Under the pieces are notes generated by a model, which made no database searches, was not told the origin of the DNA, and saw only the letters and a list, made by a program, of their open reading frames with translations. The position numbers were made by a program, and so were the translations under genes. Shown piece after piece: positions 19,717-56,494 of a stretch of DNA of 64,000 nt (positions within the stretch are counted from its first letter, which is position 1; each line of letters opens with the position of its first letter). This stretch comes from Williamsoniiplasma luminosum (GTDB lineage Bacteria > Bacillota_I > Bacilli_A > Mycoplasmatales > Mycoplasmataceae). The stretch covers positions 62,001-126,000 of the forward strand of contig NZ_CP024963.1 of NCBI RefSeq assembly GCF_002803985.1. Reading direction: 5' to 3'.

Positions 19717-22272
19717 TTATTTATTAAATTTTGGTCTAAAATCTTTGTTTCAAACATCAGCCATATTATCGTATAGATTAGTGTTTGTAACATTCGAAAC
19801 ATCTCATTTGGATAGATCTTGATTAAATGCTCTGGCTGATCAAAACATTCCTTCCACAGTAGTTACTTTTGAAGTATTTCACTTTGAAATATCTTGATTG
19901 AATGATGTAGCTCCCATAAACAATGCTTCCATATTAACTACATTTGATGTGTCTCAATTAGATATATCACTATTAAACTTTGGTTTATAAGCTAAAGCCT
20001 GAGACAAACTAATTATTTTTGGACTGATATAGTTAGGCACCTTTTCAACAGAATCAGGCAGAGTATTTCTTCATCCATTGCCATTTCAACCAATATTAAT
20101 AATTTCTTTTGTTCCTTCAGGAGCCCAAGTTGAAGTCACTTGAATCTTATTATTTCCATCTAAATAAATAGTATTAGAATTGGTGTCTCTATTTTTGATA
20201 AAATAGAGATCAATTTCTGAAGCGTACTTAAAGGTGTTATCATCACTTCCATTCCCGGTAACTTTTCATCGCTGAATATATGATTCATTTAAAGTCTTAT
20301 CTTCTTCAACAGTAATTCCACCTTCAACATCTAAATTTGCTTGATTAATTGCTTTTTGTAAATCAGATTGCTTTCAAAGATCTGTCATTTTTGTATTCAA
20401 AATTTTTACTATTGGGGTTTCAACTTTGGCAACTGAAGGGATAATAGTGTAATTCACAATAACTTCTCCAACATAGTCATAATTCCCTTTAATTTTTGCA
20501 CTAGTTTCATTAATGATTTCAATATCTAATCCTTGTAATTTAATTTCTGGGTTTTCCTTAATAACTATTCTTCTAATTGTTTCTTCTTGATTATTTTTTA
20601 CACGTCCTAGATTAGTCGTTGTAATCACTTTTTTAATATCAACTTTATTACTTTCTGACTTGATAAATGCTTCATAAGCTTCACTTAATGTTTTTGTCAC
20701 TTGTGTGACTTGCGCTTCTTGATCTGCTAATAAATTTTGCTCGCGGATATGTTCTGCTTTTTTAATTTCTCGTTCTAAATGATCAACAACTGCATGGAGT
20801 TTGTTATTTTTATCACCAAAAAGTAAACCTTTGGCTGTTGCAAGTGTTGTATCTAATCGGCTGTAATCAACAAATTTATTATCTGCTTGATAGAACTCAA
20901 GAATTGCCAACTGTAATTTGTTGATTGCTTGATAAACTTCTTTTTCTCGACTAATTCCAAGATCAGCAATGCCAACATCATTAGCTTTGATGATTGCATC
21001 AGTTAAATTATTTGTTACTTGTTCTGGTTTAAAGTGTTTTGAACTTGAAACTTGATTAGCTTCAGCTAATAAAGCATTTAATTTTTTAGAAGCCTTAACT
21101 GCTTTTAGATCTGGGTTTTTAATTGGATCATTAAAGTCATTAATTGCTTTTTGTAAATCGTCAATTGCTTTAGATAAAACACCTTCGTTTTCTATTTCGT
21201 TTTCATAAACACTATCAATTCCTTCGGCAAGCCCAATCGCTTTTTTCAATTCAGCATATTGAACAAAACCTTTATCTTTTTGTTCAATCTTATTGGCTTG
21301 CTGAATTAAATTTTCAAATGTATCTAGTTTTGGGTTGTCAACAGCATCTAATTTATTAGCATTTAATTCAATATCATTAGCTCTTGGAGCTAATTGCTGA
21401 CTATCTTGATTTTGTTCTAATACATCACCCAACATTCTATCATTTAAATTACTTCTTGTTAAGTTTCCATTTTCCACATTAGGTCTTTGGTTGTCAACGT
21501 TTGGTAACATAATCACACCAAAGATTGTTGATCATAAATGCTCTGCTGCTTTATCTACCGCGTTTCGATGTTCTTTGCTGTTATCTCAAGATTTTGCTTT
21601 TTGATAAATATTTTTAGCTTCTTCGAATGCTTGTTTCATTGCTTCAATGGCAGGATCTTTTGGGTCCTTTCGGTCAGTTTTAACTTTTCCATAAGAATTG
21701 ATATTTGCACCCAACATAAAGACATCAACCACTTCTCTGTCAGCCCTTGTAAAATCAAAAATTGCTGCATCTAATTTCGCAATAGCATCTCCAATTTCAT
21801 CTTGTTTATGAGCCAACGGTTTAGTTTTAACAATTCCTTTTCCATATCCAATTTCTTGATAAAGCGTGAATTTTGCTGAGTTAATCATTGTTGAATATGT
21901 ATTAGATTCAACTAGCTTTGCAGCCTCTTCAATTTTTGCTTCTAAAGCATTTAAGTCTGCTGAATTAAGTGTGAATTCAACTGTAAATGAACTGGCAAAC
22001 ATGTTTTGCCCATCTACCTCAATTGAACAAATAGTATCTGTTTCATGTTTAAATGAATCAAAATTAATAATTAGATCATCTTGGTTAAATGTATAGTTTG
22101 GATTGGCCTTTTTAATGCCTCCAATAATATATTTTTTGTCTAATCCATCTATCCCACCGATATTTGTCTTTAAACTTTTTAAATTGATGATTTTATGTCC
22201 GCAACTAACCACAAGCAAAGTGGTTGGAACAACCAAGGATATACCCACTAATATACTTAATAACTTTTTCAT
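19717..22272 (-). CDS. Surface lipoprotein A (Cys24; FIVAR-like and DUF285)
   Basis: 851-residue prelipoprotein. Signal and lipobox LLVVSCG put the lipidated cysteine at residue 24. Order: a beta module (about 25-105), helices (106-250), a polar Asn/Asp-rich linker (about 253-320), FIVAR-like helices (about 325-545), two more beta modules (about 550-725; the last ends APEGTKEIINIGWN), then three to four DUF285/BspA repeats such as FNQDISKWNTSKVT. Expected on the cell surface, as an adhesin or variable antigen; no direct proof. It is second in a two-gene unit with B, whose stop lies 54 bases upstream. Confidence 0.82.
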
Positions 22273-22326
22273 ACAAAATGCCTTTTATCTTTCTAAAAAA
22301 TTTTTTAATTTTTAGGTTTTTTATTG

Positions 22327-24567
22327 TTAGTTAAATTTTGGTTTTTGTTCTTGTTTTCATGTTGCTGGGGTGCCATCGTCAAATTCGAACTTATTTGTGA
22401 CTTTTTGAACGTCTCATTTAGATAGATCTTGACTAAATCGATAGGCGTATAGAAACATTCCTCCCATATTAGTAACATTTGAAGTGTTTCAGTTTGAAAT
22501 ATTATTATTAAAACGGTAAGCACCTCCAAACATTTGATACATGTTTGTGACATTTGAAGTGTTTCAGTTTGAAATGTCTCCATTAAAGATTTCAGCTCCG
22601 CCAAACATTTGCATCATGTTTGTGATATTTGAAGTATTTCATTTTGAAATATCTCCATTAAATGTTTTTGCTTCTAAAAACAAGTTTTTTGTGCTTTCTA
22701 TTTTTGGACTAATATAATTAGGAACTTGCTTAACAGTTTTAGGCAACTGATAAGCATTACCATTTTTATCTCAACCAATATTGATAAATTCTTCAATCCC
22801 TTCAGGAGCACTGTCATTAATTGCTTTGATGTCATCATTTTTATCAAGATAAATAGTTTTATCTTGATTCTCTCGATCTAAAACTTGATAGAGAGTTAAT
22901 TCACCTTTATATTTGCTGAAATCATATTTGTCATATGCTTGAACTTTAAAACGTTTAACTTTTGGGTTTTCACTATATTTAGTTTCAATTACTCTTAATG
23001 CATTCTTTTGATCAAAATTTTTCTTTTCAATTGCTAGTTGCAATTGATGAGCTGTTCAAAAATCTTTTTTTGTATTCACAAGATCATCAAGTTCATATCT
23101 AAGGTTTTCAATATCTAAAACAAAAGTCACAACTGTTGTTGCAAGATAATCATTAACCCCTGTTAGTTTAAGACTAAATTCCCCAGTGCCATTAAATAGT
23201 TCAACTTGACCCATTATATAATCTCGTCCTTCTTTAAGTTTAGGAAATTGAGCTTGTAACTTTTCTTTAATAGTTGGTATATTGTTATCTTTCAAAACAC
23301 CAAGCGAGGTTTTGTAAAAGATAACACTTGCTAGGTTAATTCGGTCTGCTGTACTGATAAACTTTAAAGTTGCTTGTCATAAATCCTCAGTCTTTTGATC
23401 AACTTCATCTTGTTTATCTACTGTTAATTTGTTCTCGATATATTTTTCAGCCTGATCAATGGCAGCTTTTAAAAGTTTCCAATCTTGATCACGTTTATTT
23501 TTTTGAGTCAGCTTGCTAGCCATTTTAATATTTGCTTTTAATCATGTTAAATCAGCTTCTTGATTTAATATGTTATTAAAATCTTTCATGATTCGTTGTA
23601 AGTCTTGAACTTCTTGATCAATTTTGCTTTGTTGGTCAAATGTTGGTTCAGCATCAACAATTCCTTGAGCATGCATAATTTTTGTTTGTAATCCTATTCA
23701 TGATGACTTTGGTTTTAAATCTTGTGAAATTTTTTGAGCATCAATGACTAATTGTTGTAGTGTGTCAACATTCGCTTTTTGTTTACCTGCATTAATGTAT
23801 GCTTCAATTGCTTTGTTTAATCTGATTGTCGCTTGTTCTACAAGGTCTTGATCGGCTGTTGTGTATTGCTTATTAACAACTTTTTTCCCCTCAACAATTG
23901 CACGATTTAACCCCGTTGCTGCTCTAAGATCTTTTTTAGGATAATCAATCAAAGCTTGACTCGCTTTATTGAGTGCATTCTTTAATTGAGTATAATCTGC
24001 AAATTCATTAGTTGAATTCAAAAAACCAAGCATTGCAGTTTGTAATTTAAAAACATTTTCATTGATTAACCCTTGATCTTTTCTTAATGAAGTTTTAGAT
24101 GCCACAGTTTCTATTTCTGTAATTAGGTTTTTTAATTTTGTTTTTTCTGTTGGTAATTTTTTCGGATTTTGTTCAAGCAGACTATTTGCATTAGCAATTC
24201 GATTTTTTAAAATTTCTATGTTGACTAATTCATCATCAGTTTGCTTAAAAAGATCCATTGCCGCTGTTAATCTTTCATAAGCTTCAGTTAAGACATTAAA
24301 GTTTTCTGTTTCATTGATATAGATATCCAAAGTCCCGTTAGCTTCTCCAATTGCTTCATGCAATAGTTTGTATGAAGCAATTGGTTTGCTTTGTTCTTGA
24401 TTTGTCAATGTGTTAGCATTAGCAATTAATTTAGTTAATTGTTCTCTAGTTATTATTGTAAGAACTGCAGGAATATTAGTTCTTGGTAATTTAGCAAAAG
24501 AAACAATCGCTGTTGCACTTGTTGAAACAAGTCCTAAAGTTCCTAATATACTTAATAGCTTTTTCAT
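22327..24567 (-). CDS. Surface protein B (no lipobox Cys; FIVAR-like and DUF285)
   Basis: 746 residues. Signal-like MKKLLSILGTLGLVSTSATA is followed by IVSF, with Phe at position 24 where lipoproteins have Cys. FIVAR-like helical repeats span about 30-410 (e.g. QGLINENVFKLQTAMLGFL), then a beta module with EGRDYIMGQVELFNG (about 430-500), a second one with YDKYDFSKYKGELTLYQV (about 540-600) and four DUF285 repeats (NTSNVTNMYQMFGGAYRFN type). Start taken at MKKLL rather than 12 codons upstream, because AAAGGA sits just before it. Lies directly upstream of lipoprotein A. An ATA-containing signal could suit signal peptidase I, or the segment may stay as a membrane anchor. Confidence 0.8.
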
Positions 24568-24888: not shown

Positions 24889-27051
24889 TTAAATATTATG
24901 TACAAAGTTTGGTTTTGGTAAGGTTCAAGCAGTTGCATCTTTGTCAAAATCTTTATATGATGTAACTTTTGAAACATCTCAGCCTGATAGATCTTGATTA
25001 AAGTCTTTCGCTCCTTCAAACATACTATCCATGTTAGTTATGTTTGGACTAACATATTTTGGAACTTTTTGAACAGTTGAAGGCATTTTGTATGCTTTAC
25101 CAGTTTTATCTCAACCTAAATTAACAATTTCCTTAGTTCCTTCAGGAGCAACACCATCTATTCATTTTAGGTTACCTCATATATCTAAATACATTGTTAG
25201 ACTTTGAGTTTCTCTATTTAAAATTTGATCAACAATGAATCCACCTTTATATCTACTATAGTTAGATTTTTCATTTGCTTTAATTGAAAATCTTTTAACC
25301 CCAATATCTGCATATTCAAATTCTGTATCTACTTCAATTGCATTTTTTCTATCTATTTTTTTATCTTCAATAGCTTTTTGTAAAGGACCAATCTTTCAAA
25401 TTTCTTTTGAAGAATGAATCATGTCTTCAATTTCTTTTTGAATGTGTCCGATAGGTAAAGTGAAAATTAAAATTGAATTGCTTCTATAATTACCAATACC
25501 TTCAATTTTGACATATCATTTTGCTACATCGCCTTTATCTACATCATCTATTGTAGGATCTCCAATTGTATAGTCATCCCCTTCTTTAACAGGTGTATCT
25601 TTAAATTTTTCAATTATTGCATTTTTCACTGTATCTTTATCATTGTTTGGCAATAGACCAAGACTGGTATAAGCAGGGATATAAAGTTGAATATATGATC
25701 TATTCTTTTGTCCTGCAAAATGAAGCATAGCATCTCATAAAATTTCATGTTCATTTTCAACTTCACCTTGTTTATCGATAGTTGGGCTTGTTCCTAAAAA
25801 TTCCGTTGCTCTTTTAAGAGCAGCTTCGAATGTTTTAATATCACCTGGTCTTTTTTTATCTTTATTGCCGTTTTGTAATTTTGTTGCTTGTTCAATTGTT
25901 GTTTTAAACGTTTCAATATTTGCTGGCTCATTCTCAGCCGCTTCAAAAGTTTTGATAGCCGCTTCTAATTCTTTTATTTTTGCTTCGACAAATTTTTCCC
26001 TATCGATTGAGGGTTCACCATTAACAATTCCTTGGGCAGTCGCAATTTTTTCTTCAAACTCTTTACGAGACTCTTTATTTTTATAACGGTGCTTGTCTAA
26101 TTTAGCAATTGTCTTGGCTTCTTCTAACAATGTCTTTAAATTTGGAAGATTTTTTGCCTTCTCTTTATTTGAATCTTTAAATATTACAAAAGCTTCTTCT
26201 ACTTTTTGGGTTCATCCATCAACCACTTTTTGTCCTTCAACACCTGATAGTTCAGATGAAATAAGGATCTGGAATGCACCCTTCAGTACTATTTCAAATG
26301 TCCCTCTTGCTATGTTATTATGTTTGTGTCCAGCATCAGAACCCCAATAACTGTTTCCTTCTTGATATGCAGCAGTTAACTTAGATTTATCTACTGATTT
26401 TTCATTCCCTTTATAAATGAGCATCGCGTTTTGCAAGTTGTTTGCTGCTAAATTCACATCGTTCTGTTTTGACATAGGTAGTTTATCTTTACCACCCAAA
26501 ACATCTTTAGCTTCTTCTAGTGCTTTTTTTAACGCTTCTATAGGATCAGCCTTTGCTGGTTTGGTTTCTGGTTGGGTTTCATCTAAATTTCTTGTTTTAA
26601 ATGAAGTTTCTGGTGCGGGAGGTTTTTGTTCACCTTGACCTTGCTCTTCATAACCTTTAATAATGTTTTCAGCTTGTTCAATTCGTGTATTCAATCTTGT
26701 TATTTCTGCATAAGCATTACTATTTGAATCTTTGAATTTATTCATGGCTTGTTCTAAAGTAGTAGTAGCATTACTCAAGGCATCTCCATTTTCTTTTGTA
26801 TTTTCATAGATTTCTAAAGTACCTTTAGCTTCTCCAATTGCATTAAATAACTTTTTATTAGCTTCATTAGTTTTATCTTGACCTTCATTTTTTACTAATT
26901 CTTCAGCTTCTATTATTAATTTTTTTAAAGCAGTTACTTCAGGCGCTTCTTCCCCTTCTTTGCTTTTTGGAATGGTCGTCAAAGAAATGACAGCTGTTGC
27001 ACTTGTTGAGACTAGTCCAAGAGTTCCTAATAAACTTAATAATTTTTTCAT
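24889..27051 (-). CDS. Surface protein C (no lipobox Cys)
   Basis: 720 residues; signal ends TAVISL with Leu24. Helical FIVAR-like segments (about 30-130 and 190-430) are interrupted by an acidic Gln/Pro linker (about 140-185, GYEEQGQGEQKPPAPE). One beta module (about 445-525, KEGDDYTIGDPT), a second (about 560-630) and only one to two DUF285 repeats (FNQDLSGWDVSKVTSYKDF) remain before the short tail PKPNFVHNI. This is the most divergent member of the array and stands alone, with terminator structures on both sides, not paired with a Cys24 gene. Start MKKLLSLL follows AAAGGA. Confidence 0.8.
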
Positions 27052-27480: not shown

Positions 27481-30090
27481 TTACATTACTCATTTTGGGT
27501 GTATTTCAGGGAAAGATTCAATTCCTGAAGCTATTGCAAAATTTTCATGATGTTTAACTTTTTGAACATTTCAACCCGAAAGATCTTGTCTAAATGCCAT
27601 TGTTATTTTAAACATTTCAGTCATGTCAGTTACATTATCAGTCTTTCATTTTGAAATATCACTATTAAAGTGCTGAGCACCATAAAACATTTCTTTCATG
27701 TTAGTTACATTGATTGTGTTTCAGTTTGAAAGATCACTCTCAAAATTTGCAGACATGAAAAACATTTCTTGCATACTAGTTACATGTGAGGTATCTCATC
27801 TTGAAAGATCCACACTGCCTGCAAATGCATGTTTAAACAATCCATCTAGTTTAGTTATCTTAGGACTAATGTAAATTGGAACTTTTTTAATATGATCAGG
27901 CATTACATGTGCTTGCCCATTTTTATCTCAACCAATATGAAGAATTTCTTCAATATGCCTTGGAGCACTACGTTCTACTGAATACATTTTGTTATAAATG
28001 TGGTCAAAATAGATCGTTTTTGAATTTGTATCTCTATTTTTGACAAAATAAATTTCAATTGATGAAGCATAATTAAATTCATTATCACTTTGTGCTTGAC
28101 CAATGAATTTTCATTTTTGAAGACCATGTGTATCTCATTCATTAACTTTTTGTACCTTAATTCCGTCTTTTATATCAAATTTTGCATCATCAATTGCTTT
28201 TTGCAATTGATCATCGGTTCAAAATTCTGTCATTTTAGAATTTAAAATTTCTTTTAATTTATATTCAAGTTCTGTGATTTGTTGAATTAATGTGTATTGG
28301 ACATTTATTGTTCCAAAATGATTTCAAGTTCCAGTAATTTCTACATTGTTATTGTTTAAAACTTCGATATCAAATTTTGCATCCTTAGCATCTGGATTCT
28401 TTTTAAGAATTGCTTTTCTAATTGATTCTTCATCATTATTTGGAATGCGATCTAGATTCTTATTTTTAATAACTGTTTTAATATCAGTTTTGTTTGGACT
28501 TCTTTCAAATCTTTCCATTGCCTTGGTTAATTGGTCAATATAATTTTTAATTTGATTTTGGTTTTCAAATGTTAAATTTTTAGCATCATCTTCTGTTTGT
28601 TGAATTACTTCATTAAATCATCTTGTTGCTTCTTCAGTTTTATTTACTTTTTTTGGTAAAGCATTTGCTTCATCAATTGTTTTATTTAATTCTTTAAGAT
28701 CAAATACATTAATAGCACTATAGAATTTAATGATGGCTGATTGTAATGTTTTTATTGCTTTAAAAACTTCATCTTCTTGGCTAATTCCCAAATTAGACTT
28801 CACAATTTTACTTGCTTCTATAACTGCATTATTTAATTTTTTAACTGCATCTTCTGATTTATACTTTGTATTTTTTAAAGCGTCATTAGCTTCAGTTATT
28901 CTAGTTTGTAAATTTTCTGTTGCTTCAATTGCTTTAATATCTTGTTGACGATCAAATTTTCTCATTGCAGCTTGTAAATATTCAAGGGCATCTTCTAAAA
29001 TGTATGGATGATTTAATTCATTCTGATAAATAGCACTCACACCTTGTGCATGACCAATAGCTTTTTTCAATTCTGCATACTTGTCAAAGCCTTTATCATT
29101 TTGTTTAATATCTTTGGCTTTGTTGATTAAAGTTTCTAATTGTTGTTTTGTTGTATTATTTGTGTTTTCTAAATCACCACTCTTAATAGATTTACTATCA
29201 TCCTCTAAAACTAATGGATTAGTTTTTTCTGGAACATTTTTTCTTAAAGGGTTTGTTTGGTTTTCAACAATCAAATCAACATTCTTTTGATTTGATTGTT
29301 GAACATTATAATTATAAATATCTGGTTTGATCACAAAAGCAAGAATGGCTGCTCACAATGAATTAGCAGCTTTGTTTATATCATCTTGGTGATCCACAGC
29401 GTTTCAGTTTTTAGTTTCTTCTATCTTGGATTGTGCTAAAGTAATGGCCTCTTGTAAAGTCTTTTTGCAATCATCGTCTTTTTTAGTTGTTGTTAAAACT
29501 TCTTGTGCTGTTTTAATATTTTCTTTTAACATTCATAAATCAACTGTTTTACGACCACAAGTTTCAAATCAATCAATTGCATCTTCTAATTTTTGACAAG
29601 TTTCTGCAACTTCAGCTTCTTTATTAATTGTTGGAGCAACACTAGCAACTCCTTCGGCATACCCGATTTGTTCAGAAAATGTAAATCATTCGTCATTCAT
29701 TACAATCTCTTTTTTAACATTATTTGCTTGGTTAATTAATTGTTTTAATTTTTCTAAATTTGCTAAGTTAAGTTTAAAATGAACTATATGTGTCCCAACA
29801 AATGTAGTTTTTCCTTCTAATTGAACATAATAAATTCTATTCTCAGGGCTGTCTGATTTTTCGAATTCTAATGAATCAAAATTAACATCTATATCAGCAC
29901 TACTCATTTTGTAATTTGGATTTACCTTCTGAAATGCTTTAATAATTGCTTCTTTATTCAATTGATTAATGGCACCTAGATCAGTTTGAAAATTACTAAT
30001 TGAGATTAATTGAGTTCCACAACTAACAACAAGCAAAGTGGTTGGAACAACTAAAAACACACTTGCAAATATAGTTAATAATTTTTTCAT
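27481..30090 (-). CDS. Surface lipoprotein D (Cys24; FIVAR-like and DUF285)
   Basis: 869-residue prelipoprotein with LLVVSCG, Cys24. It follows the plan of A: beta module (about 25-105), helices, polar linker near residues 253-330 containing QQSNQKNVDLIVENQTNP, FIVAR-like helices (about 330-520), beta modules (about 525-710) and four DUF285 repeats (FNSDISKWKTDNVTDM). The C-terminal tail differs from its paralogues: it ends EIHPKWVM instead of KPKFN, which suggests an independently replaced end. E lies upstream, 266 bases away. Confidence 0.82.
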
Positions 30091-30226
30091 TTATATTTCT
30101 TTTCTTTCCCAAAAAATTTTATTTTTTGTTTCTTATTTTCTTGTTATTGATTGAGTCTTTAATTAAACAATTTTCAACACTGACTGAGTGTTCAAAGAAT
30201 TAAAGTCCTTAGTTTTAAGAAAAATT

Positions 30227-30260
30227 CAACTCATGTTAGTTCACAAACGAACATGAGTTG
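30227..30260 (-). terminator. Probable terminator of surface protein E
   Basis: CAACTCATGTT and AACATGAGTTG form an 11-base stem, followed on the minus strand by AATTTTTC. A second hairpin (AGTTCTAACA at 30331 and its complement ending at 30358) covers the E stop codon itself. Confidence 0.6.
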
Positions 30261-30356
30261 ATATCTTTCCATGAATAAAGGCATTAAACGCCATTTATTA
30301 CCATTATTTTAATTAGCATTTAAGCTATGTAGTTCTAACAATTGTTGTTGTTAGAA

Positions 30357-32120
30357 CTATTTTTCTAATTTTTGAGATATTATTAGATCCCCACTAAATG
30401 AACTGTAATCAAAACTTTTATTTGCACTAATTCTGAAATTTTTACCTTCAACTGTTCCGTCGTTTGGCATTTCTTTTACTATTAACCCATTTGTACGATC
30501 TAATCCAGCATCATTAATTGCAGCTTGTAAGTCAGAAACTGTTCAAAGTTGATCTTTCTTGTCATTTACGATTTTTGTAAGTTGATCTTTAATATAATCG
30601 ATTTTTAATACAAATTTTACAATTGTTGTGTCTGAGTAGTCACCAGTTCCTGTAAGAACAACATGATATTTTTCACCTTTTGTTGTTTGTTCAGCATTTC
30701 CGATTGTGTATGAAGCAAACTCTTTAAAATCTTTTTCTAATTGTGCTTTAATAGTTGCTTCTTCAATATTTTCTAAAGGAGCACTCAATAAAGTATTATT
30801 AGCAATTTCATGTCTAATATCAGTTCTTTCTACTGAACTTAAGAAATCAACAGTTGCTTTTCACATAGCATTAGCTGCAGTATTAACTTCAACTTGTTTA
30901 TCAATATCTGGTTGTTTGTTAACTTCTGTCTCTGATCCTAATACTTTTTCAGCTGCTGCAATTGCATCATTAAAAGTCTTAATTGCTTTAGGTGTTTTAT
31001 TTGTATCTTTAATTGCTTTGGCAGCAGTGATGTTTGCTTTTAACATATCAATATTTGCTTTAGCATTATCTGAACCTGTAAATGCTTTAATTGCAGCATC
31101 TAATTTGTTAGTTTCAGCTTTAATTGCTTCTTCTTGACCTTTAACTGGTTTACCATCAACAATTCCTTGTGCATGTCCAATTGCTGTTTGGAAGATAATA
31201 CGATTTGCTTCAGTTTTGTGATTTGGAACAACTGCATCAGCATTAGCAACATTGTTAGCTTCTTTAATTTTTGCAATTAATGCTTTTAAATCAACACCTT
31301 CTTCATTTTCAGGATTAAGCGGTGGTAATCCTGCTTTTTCATATTTTGCAATTGCATCTAGCAATGCTTGAGTTGCTTTGTTTACAATGTCTTGTTTACC
31401 TGTTGTGTGGTTCTCACGAACAACAGCTTCAGCTGTTTTAATTGCTTCTAATATGCTTTTATTTGCTGCATCGTTTTTATCTTTGTTTTTATCTTTGTGA
31501 GAATTAGTAGCTTTAATAATTGCAGCGTCTAATTCTTTATAATCTGCTCTTTCATTAGTTGCTTTTAAAAAGTCAACCATAGCTTTTTGTAATACCAATA
31601 CAGCATTATCAACTTCTTTTTGTTCACTTAACATATGTGTAGCTTTGAAAATATTATTTGCATCTTCAATTGCTTCTTCAAAATCTGTTTTGGCTTGGTC
31701 AAGTTTATTATTATTAGTTGGTTTTGCAAGATGTTCTTTTGCATCTTTAATTCTTTCATCTAATAGTTTTTTATCAGCATTTTTTGCTTTTATATTTTCA
31801 AATACATTAATTGCATCTTGTAATGTTGTTTTAGCAATTGCTAAAACACCAATATGATCATCTTCATTTTTATAAATATCAAGAGTCCCGTTAGCTGCTC
31901 CAATTGCATTGTGTAATGCTTGGTATGCTTCAACTCCTTTATTTGGTTGTTTAACTAATTCTTTAGCTTCCTCGATTAAAGCATTTAATTCTTTTTGAAT
32001 CCCGTTTTCAGTTTCTACTTCTGAGTTATTATCTTTTGTTATTTCTGTAAAAGAAACAACAGCTGTTGCACTGGTTGAAACTAGTCCAAGAGTTCCTAAT
32101 ATACTTAATAATTTTTTCAT
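30357..32120 (-). CDS. Surface protein E, lacking DUF285 repeats
   Basis: 587 residues; signal TAVVSF, Phe24. Ala/Lys-rich FIVAR-like helices cover about 30-440 (e.g. VNKATQALLDAIAKYEKAG), then one beta module (about 445-525, FASYTIGNAEQTTKGE) and part of the next, ending FSGDLIISQKLEK and TAG. All paralogues except K continue here into an APEG.KEIINIG segment and BspA repeats; none is found in any frame downstream, so the C-terminal region has been lost. Start MKKLLSIL is preferred to an ATG seven codons upstream. Cleaner Ala-rich composition than its neighbours. Confidence 0.8.
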
Positions 32121-35208: not shown

Positions 35209-35265
35209 TTAAAGCATCCTTTCTCTTTCCCAAAAATTTAGATTTTTGGTTTGGGTTTGTTATTA

Positions 35266-37775: not shown

Positions 37776-38100
37776 TTACTTAAATTTTGGTTTATGTTCT
37801 TTTTTTCAATTTGGATTGGCATTATCAGCAAATTCTTTATATGCTTTAACTTTGCCCACACTTCAGTTTGAAATGTCTTGATTAAAGGCTTTTGCACCTC
37901 AGAACATAGTTGACATATCAGTTACATTAGAAACATTTCAGCTATTGCCATTAGTTTTAATGTTTTGGTTAAATGCTTCTGCTTGATCAAAAACATTTCG
38001 CATATTTGTGACTTTTGCAGTGTTTCATTTGGAAATATCTTGATTAAATTTACGTGCTTTTCAGAACAATTTTTCAAAAGTTTCTACTTTTGAAGTGTTT
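37776..38100 (-). repeat. C-terminal repeat block shared by H and L, copy in H
   Basis: Closely similar in nucleotide sequence to 47928-48250 of gene L, including the tail encoding NPNWKKEHKP and an unbroken stretch with NSWNVSNVTDMSTMFWGAKA. Upstream parts of the two genes are less alike. Confidence 0.75.
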
Positions 38101-43350: not shown

Positions 43351-43408
43351 TTAAAGCATCCTTTCTCTTTCTCCAAAAATTTAAATTTTTGATTTGGGTT
43401 TGTTATTA

Positions 43409-45643: not shown

Positions 45644-45682
45644 TATGCATGCCTTTCTATATACGACATTCATATTCACACC

Positions 45683-45721
45683 AATACTTGATTAAGTCTA
45701 ATACAGATTTAATCAAGTATT
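45683..45721. repeat. Inverted repeat between J and K
   Basis: AATACTTGATTAA and its exact complement (45709-45721) separated by 13 bases. No T run follows on the minus strand, so it may be a weak terminator for K or an operator near the J start. Confidence 0.5.
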
Positions 45722-45758
45722 GATAATTTCATGTTTAAAAAGAAGTTATCAATTACAA

Positions 45759-45824
45759 CCTATTTAAATTTTGGTTTTGGTAATTTTCAAGTAATTGCAT
45801 TATTAAACATATTGTTCATCCTAA
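45759..45824 (-). pseudogene. Out-of-frame C-terminal remnant of K
   Basis: Minus-strand ATGAACAATATGTTTAATAA onward encodes MNNMFNNAITWKLPKPKFK, matching the last residues of intact paralogues such as G (PAWKLPKPNFN). It is joined to the truncated K frame and is not translated in frame with it. Confidence 0.65.
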
Positions 45825-47546
45825 TTATTTTATAGTTTGAGTAATGGTCACTATACCATCATAACCACTAAAGCCATATCTATTATTAGCTGTAATTTCA
45901 AATTTTCTAGTTTTACTTGTTGCACCTTCAGACATTTCAGTTACATTTAAACCATTTATAACATCTATCTTATTGTTTTCAATTTCAGCTTTTAATTCAG
46001 CAGCTGTTAAAAGTTTTGTACCTTTATTAGCAATTGTAGTAAGTTGAGCTTCAATGTTTTTGATAGCTAATCTAAAATACACAACGGCTGTTGCGCGATA
46101 ATCATTAACTCCGGTTATTAGTGCACTTGATTTGTTTTCGTTGTTTGCTACTTTAATATCTGTAATTGTATAATGAATTTTTTCTTTAACATTTGGAAAT
46201 TGGATTTCCAATTGTTGCTTAATTGTTGCTTCTTTACTATCTGCTAAAACTGCAGTTAGTTTAGCTCCAGTATAAATTTGAGCATTAATATTGATTCTGT
46301 TGTCTGAACTTAAGAATGTTAAAGTCGCATCTCACATAGCATTAGCTGCGTCGTCATATACTTTTTGTTGATCAATGTCATGATTTGTTTCATTTACAGC
46401 TTTAGCAGTGGCAATTGCTGTGTCAAAAATTCCAACTGCAGCTGGTTTTTTCTTGGTTTTATCAATTTTTTCAGCAGCATCAATGTTGTTTTGTAACATT
46501 GACTTATTTGCTTTTTCATTTTTTACCAAGCCAAAGTTATCTATTGCTGTTTGCAAGAGTTTAAGTTCAGCTGTAATTTTATCTTTTTGAGTAATAACTG
46601 GTTTTCCGGCAATAATTCCTTCGGCATGTCCAATTGCTTGTTCAAATTTATTACGCTCTTCTAAAGGTTTTAATTGATTGTTTACATCGCTCGCAATTCG
46701 TTTGGCTGTAACAATTAAATCTTTTAGTTTTGTTAAATCAACGTCATCTGGTGGAATTGGTGGTTGTCCTGCATTTTTATAATCTTCAATTGCTTGTTTT
46801 AATCGTTCAGTTGCAGCATCAACAATATTTTGTTCACCCGATGAGTATTTAGCATCGCGAACATCTTCAGCAAGTTTAATTTCTTTTCGTAATGCGTCCA
46901 TAGCTTCATCGGCTTGAGGTGTTTTTAAAGCCTCAATAGCCTTTGCAATTTCTGCTACTAATGCATCTGTGTTTGCATAAGCGTCAGTTGCATCAAAAAA
47001 TTTAAGCGTCGCAAATTGCAAGTCCGAAACCCCTGTATTAACAACGTTTTGTTCAGCAGATTTTGGTTTTCCATCAATAATTTTTTGAGCTTTTGCAATT
47101 GCTTCTTGTAGTCTTGTCTTATCTGCTTGATCTTTTCATTGATTCACAGGCGCTTCTAAAACTGTATTGGCATCAGTAATTCTTTTTCGAAGCATCTCTA
47201 TGTTTGCAAGTTGATCTGGAAATTCTGAAAAAATACCCATCGCACTCGTTAGGTTTTTATGTGCTGTGCTTAGCACATTAGGGTTTTCTGTTTCATTTTC
47301 ATAAATAATTAAAACCCCATCAGCTTCTCCAATTGCTTTATGTAGTGCTTTATAAGCATCAGGATGCTTGCTTTTTTGATCAGTTGCCATAGCTCTAGCT
47401 TCACCAATCAACTTAATTAATACATCTTTATCTATTGGTTTTGATTCAGCATCATTCCCTCTTGGTGCTTGGACCAATGAGACAACAGCTGTTGCACTTG
47501 TTGAGACTAAACCTAGGGTCCCTAATAGGCCTAATAGTTTTTTCAT
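45825..47546 (-). CDS. Surface protein K, truncated before DUF285 repeats
   Basis: 573 residues; MKKLLGLLGTLGLVSTSATAVVSL with Leu24. FIVAR-like helices about 30-400 (ERLKQAIEDYKNAGQPP), beta module about 445-525 (HYTITDIKVANNENK), then the start of the second module, ending YDGIVTITQTIK and TAA. Directly behind the stop, another frame still encodes MNNMFNNAITWKLPKPKFK, the typical end of an array protein, so the DUF285 region was removed by an internal deletion that also shifted the frame. The product would lack the C-terminal repeats. Confidence 0.8.
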
Positions 47547-47927: not shown

Positions 47928-48250
47928 CTATTTAAAATTTGGTTTATGTTCTTTTTTTCAATTAGGATTTGCTCGAGCATCAAATTCTACATACGCTTTA
48001 ACTTTCGTCACATTTCAATTTGAAATGTCTTGGTTAAAAGCTTTTGCACCTCAGAACATAGTTGACATATCAGTTACATTAGAAACATTTCAACTATTGC
48101 CATTAGTTTTAATGTTTTGATTAAATGCTTCTGCTGTATCAAAAACATTTTGCATATTTGTAACTTTTGCAGTGTTTCATTTGGAAATATCTTGGTTGAA
48201 TTTCTTTGCTTGTCAGAACAATTTTTCAAAAGTTGTTACTTGTGATGTAT
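47928..48250 (-). repeat. C-terminal repeat block shared by H and L, copy in L
   Basis: See 37776-38100 for the partner. The two blocks are about 10 kb apart and in the same orientation. Confidence 0.75.
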
Positions 48251-50198
48251 CTCAGTTTGAAATATCACCATTAAATGTTGTTGCTTGTTGAAATACACTC
48301 GTCAAATTGGTTATTGTTGGATTGATGTAATTTGGTACTTTTTCAATACTTTTAGGTGCTGGTCACGCTTTACCACCTGTATGTCCCATTAACAGAATTT
48401 CTTTAGTTCCTTCTGGGGCACTACCACCAATATGTTCGATTGTGTTTTTATTATTATCAACATAGACAGTTCAACCTTTTTTTAGGATATCTGTAATTTG
48501 AGTTACGATTACTTCACCTTTATAGGCACTAAAGTCAAGTCTATTATTGGTTGAAATTTTGAACTGTTTTACATACGTTAATTCATTTTTATATTTTGTT
48601 GATTCAACTACTTTTAAACCATTTACAACATCTATACCTTTCTTCTCAATTTCAGCTTTTAATCCAGCAGCTGTTCAAAAATCTTTATTTGCTCCTGAAT
48701 TTGCAATTGTATTAAGTTCACTTTCAATGTTTTTAATATCTAATACAAAGTAAACAGTCGCTGTTGCTGTGTAATTACCAACCCCAGTTATTAGAACGCT
48801 TGTTTTGTCATCCTTGTATGCTTTTTTAACATCTCCAATGGTGTAATCTTTGCCTTCTTTAACATTTTTGAATTGGATTTCTAATTGTTTCTTAATTGTT
48901 TCTTTTTTACTATCTGCTAAAGGAACAGTTAAGAAAGCTCCATTATAGATTTCAAAATTAATATTGATTCGGTTAGCTGAGCTGACAAAATCGAAAGTTG
49001 CTTGTCACATATCTTCAGCAGCTTGATCATATTCTGATTGTTTATCAATGTTTAGATTCTTTTGCAACACAGCATTCGCATCAGTAATGGCTTGCTTAAA
49101 TTTAGTAACTGCATCTGGTTTTTTGTTTTCTGTTTGAATCCCTTTCGCAGCATTAATGTTATTGCTCAACATTGTTTTATCAGCTTTTTCATCAGTTACC
49201 TTGATAAAGTTATCAATTGCAGTTTGTAAGGCTGTAATTTCATCTTTGATTTTTTGCTCTTGTCCTTCAACTGGGTTTCCGGCAATAATTCCTTCAGCAT
49301 GTCCAATTGCTTCTTCAAATGTATTACGTTCTGCTAAAGGTTTGAATTTATTTTTGGCATCGCTTGCAATTTTTTTAGCTTCTTCAATTTTCGCTCTTAA
49401 AGCCGTTAGATCAGGATGTGTTGGTGGAAGTACGGGTTTACCTGAACTGTTATATTCTTCAATTGCATCTCGCAATCTTTGAACTGCTTTTTCAACTTCA
49501 GCTTGTTCCCCTGATGATAAATCACGAGGAAAATCATTCGCAGCTTTAATTGCATCTTTTAATTTTTTAACCGCTTCTTCAGCCTTAGGTGTTTTTAAAG
49601 CTTTCTCAGCATCTGCAATTGCATTATCTAAACCTGTGTAATCAGCAAGTGTGTTAGTTGCATCAAAAAATGCAACCATCGCGGTTTGTAAATCTAAGAC
49701 TGTTGAATTGACAACACCTTGTTCGCCAGCTTTTGGATTTCTATCACGAACTGTTTTGGCAACACCAATTTGTTGTTGTAATGTATTTCAAGCTGATTCA
49801 AGTTTGTCACCTTTTTTAATTTTTTCTGCACTAATGATTCTATTTTTAAGTGTGTCTATTTGCGCAAATGCATCAGGTGATCCTTCAAAAGTTTGTTTAG
49901 CATTCGTTAAATTTTTATGTGCCGTATCTAACACACCATAGTTTTCAGTTTCGTTTTGATAAATTACCAAAACCCCTTCAGCTTCTCCGATTGCTTTATA
50001 TAGTGCTTTATAAGCATCAGGTGCTTTATCTTTGTTAGTATTTGCTAAGTTTGTGACTTCATTAATTAGCGCCTTTAAACTTTCAATTGATATTGTTTTA
50101 GAATCATTGCTTTTTGGTATTTCAACCAATGAGACAACAGCCGTCGCGCTTGTTGAGGCTAAACCAAGAGTCCCCAAAAGACCTAATAGTTTTTTCAT
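47928..50198 (-). CDS. Surface protein L (Leu24; FIVAR-like and DUF285)
   Basis: 756 residues; signal LGLASTSATAVVSL. Helical FIVAR-like regions about 30-400 with internal KPVLPPTHPDL linker (about 255), beta modules about 430-510 and 520-620, then four DUF285 repeats, one with the long NIKTNGNSW insert. N-terminal 130 residues and the upstream region are almost the same as M, whereas the C-terminal block matches H, which marks L as a mosaic. Ends NPNWKKEHKPNFK. Confidence 0.82.
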
Positions 50199-50594
50199 AA
50201 TTCAAAAATTCCTTCCATGGGATTGTGTTCCCATAATTCAATAATAATTGCTTTTTTGATAAAAAAAAGCGAAATACCCTAAAATTTTGTAACTTTTTAC
50301 CTCAATAGTGGATAAAATTTTAATTTAAAATTGAATAAAACCGAGAACGTTTTAAGTGAAATATGCATTTTTATAATAGAGATTTAAAACAGGTGGAGAT
50401 TTTTAAAGATTAGTCAGAGATGGGGGTTTTACGCTAATTAAGAATCGGTTTTTGATCAAATGATCTTCATTAGAAACCTTTAATTTTTTACAAATAATGA
50501 CACCCACGGCATTAAAATCACCACCTGATAAAAAGGTGGTGATTTGAAGATTCTTAATCTTTTGAAACTAATTAGTTGTTAAAGTTTATTTAAA
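50199..50594. other. Gap between L and M
   Basis: Right next to L lies the leader hairpin (50217-50234) and the GC-T6-GAT-A8-GC tract, as before K and M. The M terminator is at 50515-50545. No gene seen. Confidence 0.55.
50515..50545 (-). terminator. Terminator of surface protein M
   Basis: AAATCACCACC with its complement GGTGGTGATTT around a nine-base loop; the same core as the L terminator. Confidence 0.75.
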
Positions 50595-52934
50595 TTACGA
50601 TTTAAGATTTGGTTTAAATTTTTCTTCTCAGACAGTTGCACCCGTATCAAAATTAGTCTTATCTGTTACTTTTCCGACATTTCACTTACTTAAATCTTGA
50701 TTAAATGATGTCGCTCTTTGAAACATTCTATTCATAACAGTTACTTGTCCTGTGGTTCAATTTGTGATATCACCATTAAATGCTTTTGTATCTTCAAACA
50801 TAATACCCATATCGGTCACTTTTGAAACATTTCAAGAATTACCATTTGTTTTTAAGTCTTGATTAAATGATGAAGCATGTTGGAACATAGCATTCATATT
50901 GGTTACACTTGAAGTATTTCATTTTGAAATATCTCCATTAAATTTTTCAGCTTCTCAAAACATATCACTCATATTGGTTACATTTTTAGTATCTCAACTC
51001 GAAATATTTCCATTAAATACTTTGGCTTTATTAAACATTTTACTCATATTAGTTATTTTTGGACTAACATATGGTGAAACTTTTTCAATAGTTGAAGGGA
51101 CTTTATGTGCTTGAAATGTTTTTGCGTCTCATCCAAGATGGATAATTTCTTTTGTTCCTTCAGGAGCTGGAGTATCTGGTTCTTTTATTATATTAGTGTT
51201 TATATCAACATAAACAGTTTTAGATCTTCTTTCTCTTTCTAAAAATTGATTAATAATTACTTCACCTTTATAAGCACTAAACTCATATCTATCATTAGCT
51301 TTAATTTTAAATCTTTTCAATTTAAATGGTATATCGACATAGATTTCAGTTACTTTTAAACCATTTCCAACATCTATACCTTTTTTCTCAATTTCAGCTT
51401 TTAATTCAGCAGTGGTTCAAAATGCTGGATTCGCATTTACAAGAGTATCAAGTTCACCTTCAATGCTTTTAATATCTAATACAAAGTAGACAGTCGCTGT
51501 TGCTGTGTAATTACCCATTCCAGTTATTAGAACGCTTGTCTTATCAACCTTGTTTGATTTTTTAACATCTCCAATTGTATAATCGGTTCCTTCTTTAACT
51601 TTTGGGAATTGGATTTCTAATTGTCTCTTAATTGTTTCTTTTTTACTATCTGCTAAAGGAACAGTTAAAAGAGCTCCATTATAGATTTCATAATTAATAT
51701 TGATTCGATTAGCTGAGCTAACGAAATCAAAAGTTGCTTGTCACATATTTTCTGCAGCTTGATCGTATTCATTTTGTTTATCAATGTTTAGATCCCTGTT
51801 TCAAACAACATCTGCAGCATCAATGGCTTGTTTAAATTTAGTCACTGCATCTGGTTTTTTGTTTGCTGTTTGAATATTTCTAGCAGCATCAATGTTTTTC
51901 CCCAACATTGTTTTATCAGCTTTTTCATCAGTTACTTTGTTAAAGTTGGTGATTGCAGTTTGTAAGGCTGTAACTTCAGCTTTAATTTTTTGCTCTTGAC
52001 CAAGAACTGGTTTTCCAGCAATAATTCCTTCAGCATGTCCAATTGCTTCTTCAAATTTATTACGTTCTGCTAATGGTTTGAATTGATTTTTTGCATCGCT
52101 TGCAATTCCTTTGGCTGTAACAATTAAAGCTTTTAAAGCTTTTAAATCAAGATCAGTTTCAGGAATTTCTGGTTGCCCTGACTTGTTATATTCTTCAATT
52201 GCATCTCGCAATCTTTGAACTGCTTTATTAACTTCAGCTTGTGCCCCTGATGATAAATCAGTTGGAAAACTTTCTGCTGCTTTAATTGCATCTCTTAATT
52301 TTTTCATTGCTTCTTCAGCTTTAGGTGTTTCTAAAGCTTTATTGGCATCTGCAATTGCAGTTTTTAAACCAGTGTAATCAGCAAGTGTGTTAGTTGCATC
52401 AAAAAATGCAACCATCGCGGTTTGCAAATCTAAGACTGTTGAATTAACAAGACTTTGTTCACCAGCTTTTGGATTTTTATCACGAACTGTTATGGCAACA
52501 CCAATTTGTTGTTGTAATGTCTTTCAAGCTGATTCAAGTTTGTCACCTTTTGGAATTTTTTCTGCACTAGTAATTCTATTTTTAAGCGTGTCTATTTTTG
52601 CTAATTCATCAGACGAACCTATAAAAGTTTCTTTAGCATTCGTTAAATTTTTATGTGCTTCATCTAACACACCATAGTTTTCAGTTTCGTTTTGATAAAT
52701 TACCAAAACCCCTTCAGCTTCTCCAATTGCTTTATATAGTGTTTTATAAGCGTCGGGTGCTTTATCTTTGTTAGTAGTTGCTAAGTTTCTGACTTCAGTA
52801 ATTAGCGTCTGCAAACTTTCTTTTGATATCGTTTTAGAATCATTGCTTTTTGGTATTTCGACCAATGAGACAACAGCCGTCGCGCTTGTTGAGGCTAAAC
52901 CAAGAGTCCCCAAAAGACCTAATAGTTTTTTCAT
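50595..52934 (-). CDS. Surface protein M (Leu24; FIVAR-like and DUF285)
   Basis: 779 residues; first gene of the array in transcription order. Signal LGLASTSATAVVSL. FIVAR-like helices about 30-400 with a KSGQPEIPETDLDL linker near 250, beta modules about 440-610 (YEFSAYKGEVIINQFL), and five DUF285 repeats, one with the NLKTNGNSW insert (FNGDITNWTTGQVTVMNRMF at the end). Tail WEEKFKPNLKS. Close relative of L in the first half. Confidence 0.82.
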
Positions 52935-53251: not shown

Positions 53252-54472
53252 TTATTTAGATTGAATCGGTAAAGATACCATACCTTTAATCTTATCAGAA
53301 TTGGGGTGTGCACCGATTTCTATATTCGATGTTTTTAAATCTACAACTCCACTAAGAGGATTTAAACCCTTAACAAAATAGTCTTTTTTGAATTTAAGTC
53401 CATGACAAATATTATCTATTGCTTTTTGAATTTTTTGTTTAATTTGTGTTGTTGAGTCACTGCGGTTTATTGTTAGATTATCTTTCAATTCAGAAAGATC
53501 TTTTCTGTCATCTTCTTTGATTGCAAAACTAAAATCTCCAAAAATTGAGGGAGAACCATTTTGACCATCAGTTCCTTCTTTAGCTTTTACTTTTACTATT
53601 TCACCTAATTTTAATCCATTTTTTGGTAGTTCAACATCATATTCTTTATCAGTAATGACGGCACTTGTAATTGTGTTTATCATAAAATTAATTTTACTTT
53701 TCAACACATCTTCTTTTTCACCAACATAGGCGTTTATTTTTTTATTTAAACTTGCAATGTCCATTTTTTGGATATTAAAAGCAAAAATTTCACTTAACTC
53801 AGTATTTAAATTTGGTTCTTGTACTGACTTCAGTTTAACATATGCTAAACCTTCCTTGTCCTTGGCTTGAACATTTATTGTTCTTTGTGTTTCACCTTCT
53901 GTTGGTACAAAGCCATCACCTAAACCAATGCTGTTAATCAATGATTTGGGTCACAACATTATATTTGAAAGTTTCTTATTCTCGTCATTAATTTCGTTAC
54001 CATTCTCATCAACTTCAACAGGTTTAAGATCTTTGTCTTCATAACCATTGATTAATGTTTCTTCAAATGTAAAGTTTATCATTCCATTTGGTACTATCAA
54101 TTTTGGCTCAGACTGTTCTGGTTCTAAGTTTGTTTGCCCATCTTGAATTGTAATCTCAAATGAATCTTTAATTAAATTCGAACCTTCTACTGCTACAACT
54201 GTGATTTTATCACCAACTTCGAAAGAATCCTTCAATCCTTGGATTGTATAATCAGTATCTAAAATAGCTCCCTCAATCACATTATTTATAGCTTCTTGAA
54301 TTTGATTTTTGATAGCTTCTTTGTCGTCATTAATAGTTATTGTTAAATCTTTAATACCATTAATACTTGTTTGTTGATCAGATATGGAATTTGGATTACC
54401 ACATGCCACAACAGTTGTTGCAGTTGCGGTCATCGTTCCAACACTCCCTAAGATCATTAATAATTTTTTCAT
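53252..54472 (-). CDS. Lipoprotein N, repeated-module type
   Basis: 406-residue prelipoprotein with TTVVACG, Cys24. It is unrelated to the FIVAR/DUF285 proteins. It carries about four modules of 70-90 residues with a common pattern: a helix after DDKEAIKNQIQEAI, a YTIQGL-type strand, GDKITVVA and a final strand (DSFEITIQ; FGDFSFAIKED). No enzymatic motif is visible. Mollicute genomes often hold such families as surface antigens. One TGA Trp at about residue 175. It lies 195 bases from O, its relative. Confidence 0.75.
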
Positions 54473-54660: not shown

Positions 54661-54667
54661 TTTCAGT

Positions 54668-56494
54668 TTATTTTCCAGGAGGTACAAAATATTTTATTTC
54701 GCATTTAATTTTATCAGAATTTATATGTGCATTAATTGTTATCCGTTGTCCAGCTATAATGTCATCATCATTTAAAAGAGGATTGGAAAGAATAAAGAAA
54801 TCTTTTTTTAATTGCAGATTAAGTTCTGGATATTTATCATTTAGCGCTTCTTGAAATCTGTTTTTAAAAGTTTTAAATGTTTCAGCAGGTTTTGGTGTAA
54901 ATTGTCATTGCAAGTCTCAAATATCTACTCGTGTATCTGCTTTAAGTTTAAAACTAAATTCTCCAAAAATAGACTTAGAGCTTTTGTTAGCTATAACAGT
55001 AATTTGATCACCTACATGAATTCCGTCATGTAAAGGATAATGTTTAATAACAAAATCTCTTTTCGGTTCTGTGATATTTTTCATATCCTCAGAAGTGTGC
55101 ATAAAAGTAGCCGTATCGATCATCGTTTGAACTCTAGATTCTATAGTCTTTTGTTCTTCACCAACATAGGCATTTAATTTGTTATTTAAACTGGCAATAT
55201 TGAACTTTTTAATATCAACAACAAAATTTACATTCAAGAATTCTTTTGTTTTTGTCTTTGAATTCGATTTTTTAACACCTTTTAATTTAACATATGCAAG
55301 ACCTACATGATTCTTAGCCGTGATTGAAACTGTTCTTTGATCTGGGCCTTCAGTTGGAATCATATCCTCAGTTAAACCAGAATTATTTATTCAACCTTTT
55401 TCATATAGTCATGCGTATCTAAGTTTTTTAAATGACTCATCTTTTATCTCTTGACCATTGTGATCAACTTCAACAACTTCAACTTCATCATAATCTTTAA
55501 TTAAAGATTCATCAAAGAAAAAGTAATTCACTCCATTAGGTACTGCAGTTTTTTTGTCAAAGTTTCCATCGATTATTTCATGTGATGGTTTGATTTTAAT
55601 TTCAAATCAATCAATAATTAGCATTGATTTATCACTAGCTTTAACGATAATATTATTACCAACAACAGATTCATCATTGGGTCATTCAATTGTATAATCA
55701 ATACCTAAAACAGCTTCTTTAACGCGATCAGGGTTAGCTTCTGCGAGTTTATTATCAATGGCTTTTTGGATTTTTTCTGCAATTTCTTCTCTTTCATAAT
55801 CAACAACAGCCTCTATGTCGTTAATGTCTGAAATACTAATTTTGATGATTTGAATTGGTGCTTTATCCTTCATTCTAATGACGAAGGAATCCTTAATCAA
55901 TTCAGATTCATCTTTTGCTCTAACCAAAATTATTCCTGGTTCTGTTCACTTTTCCTCCAATCCATCAACTACATAATCTTTGCCAAAGACAGCTTTTTGG
56001 TCATTGCCTTTAATTTCTTTGAGTTTATTATCAATGGCTTTTTGGATTTTTTCTAAAATCTCTTCTCTTTCATCACCTTCAATAATGTCAGTGACGCGAA
56101 TTCCTAGAAGACTAATTCTTTGATCGTGTATTAGTGTTTTTGCTTGAATGCGAATTTCAAAATAATCTCTAAGTCATTCAGAAGTTGCATTAGCTTTAAC
56201 TGTGATTATTTCACCAGCTAATAATTCATCGCTGGGTCATATAATTTCATAATCCATTCCAAACACAGGACGGATAGTTTTTGCAAGATTTGAATTGATC
56301 GCTTTTTGAATTCTTGCTTGGATTCTTGCTTGAATTTCTTCTTTTGTTTCTCCTTCAACAACATTGATGTCATCAATGTCTAGAAGACTAATTCTTTGAT
56401 CAGATGTTGGGATGAAAACACCACATGCAACAACACTTGTTGCAGTCCCTGTTATCATTCCAATACTTCCCAATATTGTTAATAATTTTTTCAT
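54668..56494 (-). CDS. Lipoprotein O, repeated-module type
   Basis: 608-residue prelipoprotein, SVVACG with Cys24. The first part contains at least three tandem modules (about 28-115, 116-202 and 205-300), each opening with RISLLDI/KISISDI, then EEI..KIQKAIDNKL, a DY.I strand and an IIVKA strand. The second half (about 375-608) has modules like those of N (GLAYVKLKGV, HVGDQITVIA). Surface exposure is likely; function unknown. Regular module spacing gives scope for slippage or recombination. ATG lies behind AAAGGAAAG. Confidence 0.78.

What the first reader, a model, noticed from the sequence alone, without database searches (positions are those of the whole stretch)
19717..56494. Nine of fifteen aligned signal sequences carry Phe, Leu or Trp where lipoproteins have Cys24
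All fifteen preproteins in this stretch align without gaps over the first 24 residues. A, D, F, I, N and O have Cys24. B and E have Phe (TTT), C, H, K, L and M have Leu, G and J have Trp (TGA). Several are one base away from a Cys codon. The change removes the Lgt/Lsp site in a consistent way, so there may be two populations of the same surface architecture: lipid-anchored and either secreted or signal-anchored. Retention of one alignment frame argues against random decay.
Basis: partly seen in the sequence, partly recalled or inferred. Interest (0 to 1): 0.75.

Follow-up and report, generated by a model that had tools for sequence, protein, structure and literature searches.

The report
Cys-less partners of mycoplasma surface lipoproteins
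In a wall-less bacterium, one old branch of a family of surface proteins has lost the single cysteine that would attach them to a membrane lipid, yet keeps the rest of the export signal and sits in shared transcription units with lipid-anchored sisters, giving a natural test of how such bacteria handle non-lipid surface proteins without the usual signal-cutting enzyme.

Summary
All 15 preproteins align ungapped over residues 1-24; six have Cys24 and nine have Phe, Leu or Trp, and those nine contain no Cys anywhere. It is not nine changes. Trees put all 13 Cys-less members (nine here, one elsewhere in this genome, three in a sister species) in one fully supported clade against the Cys clade: one switch, then drift among bulky hydrophobics. 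The signal stays under strong purifying selection, so this is not decay, although E and K have lost their C-terminal tips. Every Cys lipoprotein of the pair family (A, D, F, I) lies directly downstream of a Cys-less gene (B, E, G, J); the trio K-J-I (Leu, Trp, Cys) recurs as Phe, Trp, Cys in the sister species. The genome has two lgt genes and lspA, but no recognisable signal peptidase I, nor have 59 relatives. Best reading: co-expressed, non-lipidated PARCEL/DUF285 surface proteins, resembling Mycoplasma hominis P80 beside P60. Whether the signal stays uncut (anchor) or is cut after residue 23 by an unknown peptidase is undecided. New variant of a known kind; moderate interest.

The parts
19717..22272 (-). 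A: Cys24 lipoprotein (VVS|C), stalk plus DUF285 tip; directly downstream of B
22327..24567 (-). B: Cys-less, Phe24 (TTT at 24496-24498), DUF285 tip; 54 nt before A
24889..27051 (-). C: Cys-less, Leu24 (TTG), followed by its own terminator-like hairpin 24842-24821
27481..30090 (-). D: Cys24 lipoprotein, downstream of E, terminator-like hairpin 27426-27402 after it
30357..32120 (-). E: Cys-less, Phe24 (TTT), short form; degenerate DUF285-like remnant in the E-D gap
32539..35208 (-). F: Cys24 lipoprotein, 57 nt after G, terminator-like hairpin 32495-32470 after it
35266..37485 (-). G: Cys-less, Trp24 (TGA at 37414-37416), DUF285 tip
37776..40415 (-). H: Cys-less, Leu24 (TTA), GTG start, terminator-like hairpin 37729-37710 after it
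40786..43350 (-). I: Cys24 lipoprotein, 58 nt after J, terminator-like hairpin 40742-40717 after it
43409..45643 (-). J: Cys-less, Trp24 (TGA), DUF285 tip; middle gene of trio K-J-I
45825..47546 (-). K: Cys-less, Leu24 (TTG), short form with an out-of-frame DUF285 remnant after its stop; first gene of trio K-J-I
47928..50198 (-). L: Cys-less, Leu24 (TTG), DUF285 tip, terminator-like hairpin 47884-47862 after it
50595..52934 (-). M: Cys-less, Leu24 (TTG), DUF285 tip
53252..54472 (-). N: Cys24 lipoprotein with spiralin domains; not of the pair family
54668..56494 (-). O: Cys24 lipoprotein with spiralin domains; not of the pair family
14696..16078 (-). Lgt (prolipoprotein diacylglyceryl transferase), first copy
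   Evidence: PF01790 E 9.5e-30
17035..18546 (-). Lgt, second copy, beside hprK (18558-19487) and the array
   Evidence: PF01790 E 2.6e-29

Best explanation
The nine Cys-less genes are one old subfamily of this array's own PARCEL/DUF285 surface proteins. Their entomoplasma-type lipoprotein signal (NCBIfam LP_plasma) kept columns 1-23 but exchanged the lipobox Cys24 for a bulky hydrophobic residue once, before the split of two species. Shown from sequence: no Cys anywhere, so no Lgt lipidation and no Lsp cut; no other membrane segment; selection on the signal; placement of four of them upstream of a lipid-anchored sister with no terminator-like hairpin, or only a weak one, between them. Inferred: the products are exported by Sec, stay at the surface by the uncut N-terminal signal helix (extended by F/L/W24) beside the co-translated lipoprotein, and can be shed by slow cutting near residue 23 by an unidentified, non-S26 peptidase, as described for M. 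hominis P80 beside lipoprotein P60.
For: One clade: 100/98 and, without signal columns, 100/100 support. Signal match to LP_plasma ends at column 23 of 24 in every Cys-less protein tested, 1-24 in lipoprotein F. Signal dN/dS 0.04-0.27 against 0.20-0.78 in the stalk. The three shortest intergenic gaps (54, 57, 58 nt) are all Cys-less to Cys, with no terminator-like hairpin in them, while hairpins follow C, D, F, H, I and L. The trio K-J-I (L, W, C) has a counterpart F, W, C in the sister species with one terminator after the Cys gene. LspA in all four genus genomes, two lgt in the window; no match over cut-off to PF10502, PF00717 or TIGR02228 in 60 genomes. Tall stalk-and-tip build makes most sense with an N-terminal anchor. 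Precedents: P60/P80 and P120/P120' of M. hominis (PMC539234).
Against: The signal's hydrophobic core is weak for a permanent anchor (approximate dG +0.7 to +2.1 kcal/mol against -0.8 to +0.9 in A, D, F, I, scale values from memory). Residues -3 and -1 still fit a cleavage site (V/I, then S/A). Spiroplasma citri cuts a non-lipoprotein signal and frees the passenger although no S24/S26 peptidase was found (PMC4392738). No expression, complex or localisation data exist. C, H, L and M are not paired with a lipoprotein.
Confidence: 0.45

Rival explanations
1. Same history, but the signal is cut efficiently after residue 23 (VVS|F/L/W) by an unknown peptidase. The Cys-less proteins are then free secreted proteins, or are held only by binding to the lipoprotein sister.
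For: -3 aliphatic and -1 small (S/A, G in r7) are kept after the loss of Cys; weak hydrophobic core; S. citri cleaves the 23-25 residue ScARP3d signal and releases beta-lactamase without an S24/S26 peptidase (PMC4392738).
Against: No signal peptidase I family hit in 60 genomes; a constrained bulky +1 residue is not needed by such a cut; a stalk-and-tip build is odd for a soluble protein.
Confidence: 0.37
2. The Cys-less genes are silent sequence reservoirs that donate stalk and tip variants to the expressed lipoproteins by recombination.
For: Closely related pairs have far more synonymous divergence in the tip than in the stalk (G/J 0.96 against 0.15; L/M 0.91 against 0.25; F/I 0.76 against 0.18), a sign of domain exchange.
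Against: Own Shine-Dalgarno-like sites and terminators, purifying selection on the signal itself, conserved Cys-less to Cys gene order in two species.
Confidence: 0.1
3. Random decay: the Cys-less genes are pseudogenes.
For: E, K and the relative's r1 have lost their DUF285 tip, with remnants after the stop, and a relaxed stalk dN/dS of 0.6-0.8.
Against: Seven long open frames here plus two elsewhere, signal dN/dS well below 1, position 24 always hydrophobic, state shared by two species.
Confidence: 0.04
4. Sequencing or code artefact: the residue is really Cys, for example TGA read as Cys.
For: G and J have TGA, one base from TGT.
Against: TGA encodes 47 of 49 conserved Trp in the same genes; other copies have TTT, TTG, TTA; a second assembly shows TTC, TGA and TTT.
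Confidence: 0.01

Closest known systems
Mycoplasma hominis P60/P80 complex and P120/P120' pair (PMC539234)
   Same: A lipoprotein and a non-lipidated protein with a type I-like signal, co-expressed (P60/P80), or two homologues with and without a lipid anchor (P120/P120'); P80 is anchored by its uncut signal and later shed.
   Different: Other protein families and a distant genus; there the signals are longer (44 residues in P80), here only the last column of a lipoprotein signal differs; complex formation and an uncut signal are not shown here.
PARCEL/DUF285 (BspA-like) surface lipoproteins of Mollicutes (PMC2996958, PMC10634449)
   Same: DUF285/TIGR02167 repeat tips on surface proteins; lipoprotein and non-lipoprotein topologies are both on record for the family.
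   Different: Those inventories mix unrelated frameworks; here lipid and non-lipid members share a related stalk and tip and the same signal module, and are paired in one array.
Spiroplasma citri ScARP3d/SARP1 adhesins (PMC4392738)
   Same: Short (23-25 residue) non-lipoprotein signal in a wall-less relative without a recognised S24/S26 signal peptidase.
   Different: ScARPs have a C-terminal membrane anchor; the proteins here have no second membrane segment.
Staphylococcal Ebh-type helical stalks (FIVAR)
   Same: Weak FIVAR matches and a Foldseek lead to EbhA 2dgj.
   Different: Below the curated FIVAR cut-off and Foldseek E about 0.01; no cell wall to span here.

Membership tests
Lipoprotein of the LP_plasma signal type (NF038029) | Match to the 24-column signal model, columns 1-23 | tested here: met
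   Over the cut-off of 24 bits for B, C, E, G, J, K, M and four relatives; L 22.7 and H 20.0 just below
Lipoprotein of the LP_plasma signal type (NF038029) | Lipobox Cys at column 24 | tested here: not met
   F, L or W in all nine; no Cys in the whole proteins. So they are not lipoproteins, though an automatic name would call most of them so
PARCEL/DUF285 surface proteins | DUF285 or TIGR02167 repeats | tested here: met
   A, B, C, D, F, G, H by Pfam; I, J, L, M by genome search; E and K lack them, with remnants downstream
P60/P80-like pair | Non-lipid protein co-transcribed with a lipoprotein | tested here: inconclusive
   Gene order, gaps of 54-58 nt and lack of terminators in three of four pairs fit, conserved in a sister species; E-D has a 266-nt gap with a weak hairpin; no RNA data
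P60/P80-like pair | Physical complex and uncut signal in the membrane form | not testable with these tools
   Needs protein experiments
Signal peptidase I substrates | Small -1 and small or aliphatic -3 residue | tested here: met
   V/I at 21 and S/A at 23 in all nine
Signal peptidase I substrates | A signal peptidase I in the genome | tested here: not met
   No hit over cut-off to PF10502, PF00717 or TIGR02228 in own genome or 59 relatives; controls ring
Pseudogenes | Broken frames and neutral substitution | tested here: not met
   Seven of nine full length, signal dN/dS 0.04-0.27; E and K truncated

The most novel reading that the evidence does not exclude
A signal-peptide-cutting enzyme outside the known signal peptidase I families recognises the V-x-[SA]|[F/L/W/Y] site, so that one inherited signal module is sorted into a lipid-anchored and a non-lipid surface pool by a single residue. 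Non-homologous proteins (r7 Phe24, own 426491 Trp24, Tyr24 in G057) would have entered this second route independently.
Probability: 0.2. Interest if true: 0.75.

Novelty: new variant of a known kind. Interest (0 to 1): 0.45.

Why it matters
Wall-less bacteria of this group have the lipoprotein enzymes but no recognisable signal peptidase I, and it is unclear how they process other exported proteins. Here nature provides matched proteins with one signal module, differing decisively at one residue, encoded side by side, in at least two species. That makes the question directly testable. It also warns that automatic annotation will name most of these Cys-less proteins 'lipoprotein'.

Tried and rejected
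TGA as Cys: rejected. Downstream or alternative lipobox: none, no Cys in the nine proteins. Nine independent losses: rejected by tree. Short forms E and K as an ancestral tipless design: rejected, remnants of DUF285 follow K, r1 and probably E. Conserved gene pair at the same chromosomal place in the relative: rejected; the site between hprK and the ECF/uvrA genes there holds a different Cys/Phe pair (r6/r7), and the orthologous trio lies between a tRNA synthetase and an Ldh gene. The genome-contig scan gave only tip matches in unrelated MAGs and no name for the organism. Adjacency alone of Cys-less before Cys is weak evidence (about 0.18 by chance, by hand count); gap length is better (0.018) but the pairs are duplicates of each other. 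Structure search gave no match with E below 0.001.

Full report
WHAT IS THERE. The window lies in a 1.03-Mb genome whose genes read TGA as Trp. Fifteen genes on the minus strand at 19717-56494 encode preproteins of 406-889 aa. With internal starts chosen by Shine-Dalgarno-like sites, all begin with the same kind of 23-residue signal and align without a gap to residue 24. TGA as Trp is secure: 47 of 49 conserved Trp of the DUF285 repeats in these genes are TGA. The nine Cys-less proteins contain no Cys at all and no second membrane-like segment.

TWO FAMILIES, ONE CHANGE. Pfam finds C-terminal DUF285 repeats in A, B, C, D, F, G, H and spiralin domains in N and O; genome search adds DUF285 in I, J, L, M. 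E and K lack the DUF285 tip. A profile of the Cys-less proteins finds a tenth member in this genome (948981, Phe24) and three in a sister species, G002: r1 Phe24, r2 Trp24, r4 Phe24, with the Cys24 proteins r3 and r5 beside them. In a maximum-likelihood tree all 13 Cys-less proteins form one clade and A, D, F, I, r3, r5 another (100/98 and 100/99). With the first 30 residues removed and two long branches left out, the split is 100/100 and needs one change between Cys and non-Cys. The codons can be linked by single steps, TGT-TTT-TTG/TTA-TGA (inference). The tree cannot by itself tell loss from gain, but the signal is that of the surrounding lipoproteins, so loss is the natural reading.

THE SIGNAL IS KEPT BY SELECTION. 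Among Cys-less pairs with any synonymous change in the signal, dN/dS of residues 1-24 is 0.04-0.27, against 0.32-0.42 in the stalk of full-length copies and 0.64-0.78 for pairs with E or K. The NCBIfam model LP_plasma matches the Cys-less proteins over columns 1-23 of 24, mostly above its cut-off, and F over 1-24; only the Cys column is gone. Position 24 stays Phe, Leu or Trp. Unrelated proteins show the same kind of replacement: Trp24 in a 411-aa DUF285 protein at 426491 of this genome, Phe24 in r7 of G002, and Tyr24 in a Cys-free 1283-aa repeat protein of G057. Half of the single-base neighbours of a Cys codon are hydrophobic or aromatic, so this run is suggestive, not proof of constraint.

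GENE PAIRS. Transcription runs O to A. Each of A, D, F, I lies directly behind a Cys-less gene (B, E, G, J). The gaps B-A, G-F, J-I are 54, 57, 58 nt, all others 181-429. Terminator-like hairpins on this strand follow C, D, F, H, I, L and N but are not found in B-A, G-F, J-I or K-J; a weak one (5 pairs) lies in E-D. The suggested units are M-L, K-J-I, H, G-F, E-D, C and B-A. In G002, r1-r2-r3 (Phe, Trp, Cys) stand in the order of K-J-I, with best matches to K, J and F/I at 53, 62 and 52-53% identity, no hairpin between them and one after r3. r4-r5 (Phe, Cys) form a second pair. The unit therefore predates the species split, although it sits at another chromosomal place there.

MACHINERY. LspA is present in all four genomes of the genus and two lgt genes lie in the window next to hprK. 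No match over cut-off to signal peptidase I families PF10502, PF00717 or TIGR02228 was found in this genome or 59 others of the family, while control genomes ring. A highly divergent enzyme would be missed. The literature agrees for Spiroplasma (PMC9666726), yet S. citri cuts the ScARP3d signal and releases beta-lactamase fused to it (PMC4392738). Signal peptidase I genes are reported from M. gallisepticum and M. pulmonis (PMC539234), so absence is not universal in Mollicutes.

HOW IT PROBABLY WORKS. Shown: no lipidation is possible, the signal is otherwise intact and selected, and four of the genes are paired with lipoproteins. Inferred: Sec export, then display at the surface. For an uncut anchor speak the absence of signal peptidase I, the hydrophobic residue kept at 24, the stalk-and-tip build (helical 38-401, mixed 417-540, repeat tip; mean pLDDT 82), and M. 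hominis P80 and P120', which keep their signals (PMC539234). For a cut after 23 speak the kept -3/-1 residues, the weak hydrophobic core and the S. citri result. I put these at about 0.45 and 0.37. The co-encoded lipoprotein would be the natural holder in either case, as P60 is for P80.

WHAT IS KNOWN AND WHAT IS NEW. PARCEL/DUF285 proteins with lipoprotein and other signals are on record (PMC2996958, PMC10634449), as are lipid/non-lipid pairs in M. hominis (PMC539234). I found no record, in the papers searched, of one lipoprotein signal module split by its last residue into two co-encoded, related populations kept across species. That makes it a new variant of a known kind.

LIMITS. The genome-wide signal census is by DNA pattern and partial; relatives are few (four genomes in the genus, one other with the family in full); terminator calls are consensus matches; hydrophobicity values are a rough sum. 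There are no expression data.

Noticed in passing
G000 C1 507790-507804 minus (L099 4790-4804); G002 C4 17669-17683 minus (L095): A DUF285 lipoprotein gene has a +1 frameshift inside its signal peptide (frame ...GTT GCG AGG, protein continues GGA ACA AC.), identical in two species although the body after the shift is only 50% identical with dN/dS 0.36 and open (541 and 763 aa frames). AGG is rare (15 of 15886 codons). It looks like a programmed +1 frameshift at GCG-AGG, or an old shared lesion; the motif occurs in no other of 60 genomes.
   Followed up: partly
window 32539-37485, 40786-45643, 47928-52934: Close paralogue pairs have tips 4-6 times more synonymously diverged than their stalks (G/J, L/M, F/I), pointing to recombination that swaps DUF285 tips or homogenises stalks.
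   Followed up: partly
window 30091-30357, 45644-45825; L035 9433-10070: Behind the short genes K and r1 lie DUF285 remnants (r1 in frame with two TAA stops, K out of frame), and probably behind E: recent loss of the tip.
   Followed up: yes
window 14696-16078 and 17035-18546: Two different lgt genes stand close together beside hprK and the lipoprotein array; two lgt genes are also reported for Spiroplasma (PMC9666726).
   Followed up: no
L044 2975-8449 (G002): The site between hprK and the ECF/uvrA genes in the sister species holds a non-orthologous, inverted pair, r6 (Cys24, spiralin-like repeats plus DUF285) then r7 (Phe24, MAG1450-like repeats plus DUF285).
   Followed up: partly
L046 7868-9784 (G056), L047 7405-11256 (G057): In another genus, Cys-free helical repeat proteins of 633 and 1283 aa carry a non-lipoprotein signal and no other membrane segment.
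   Followed up: partly
window, B C E G J K M: NCBIfam LP_plasma would name these Cys-less proteins 'lipoprotein' because the missing Cys costs only the last model column.
   Followed up: yes
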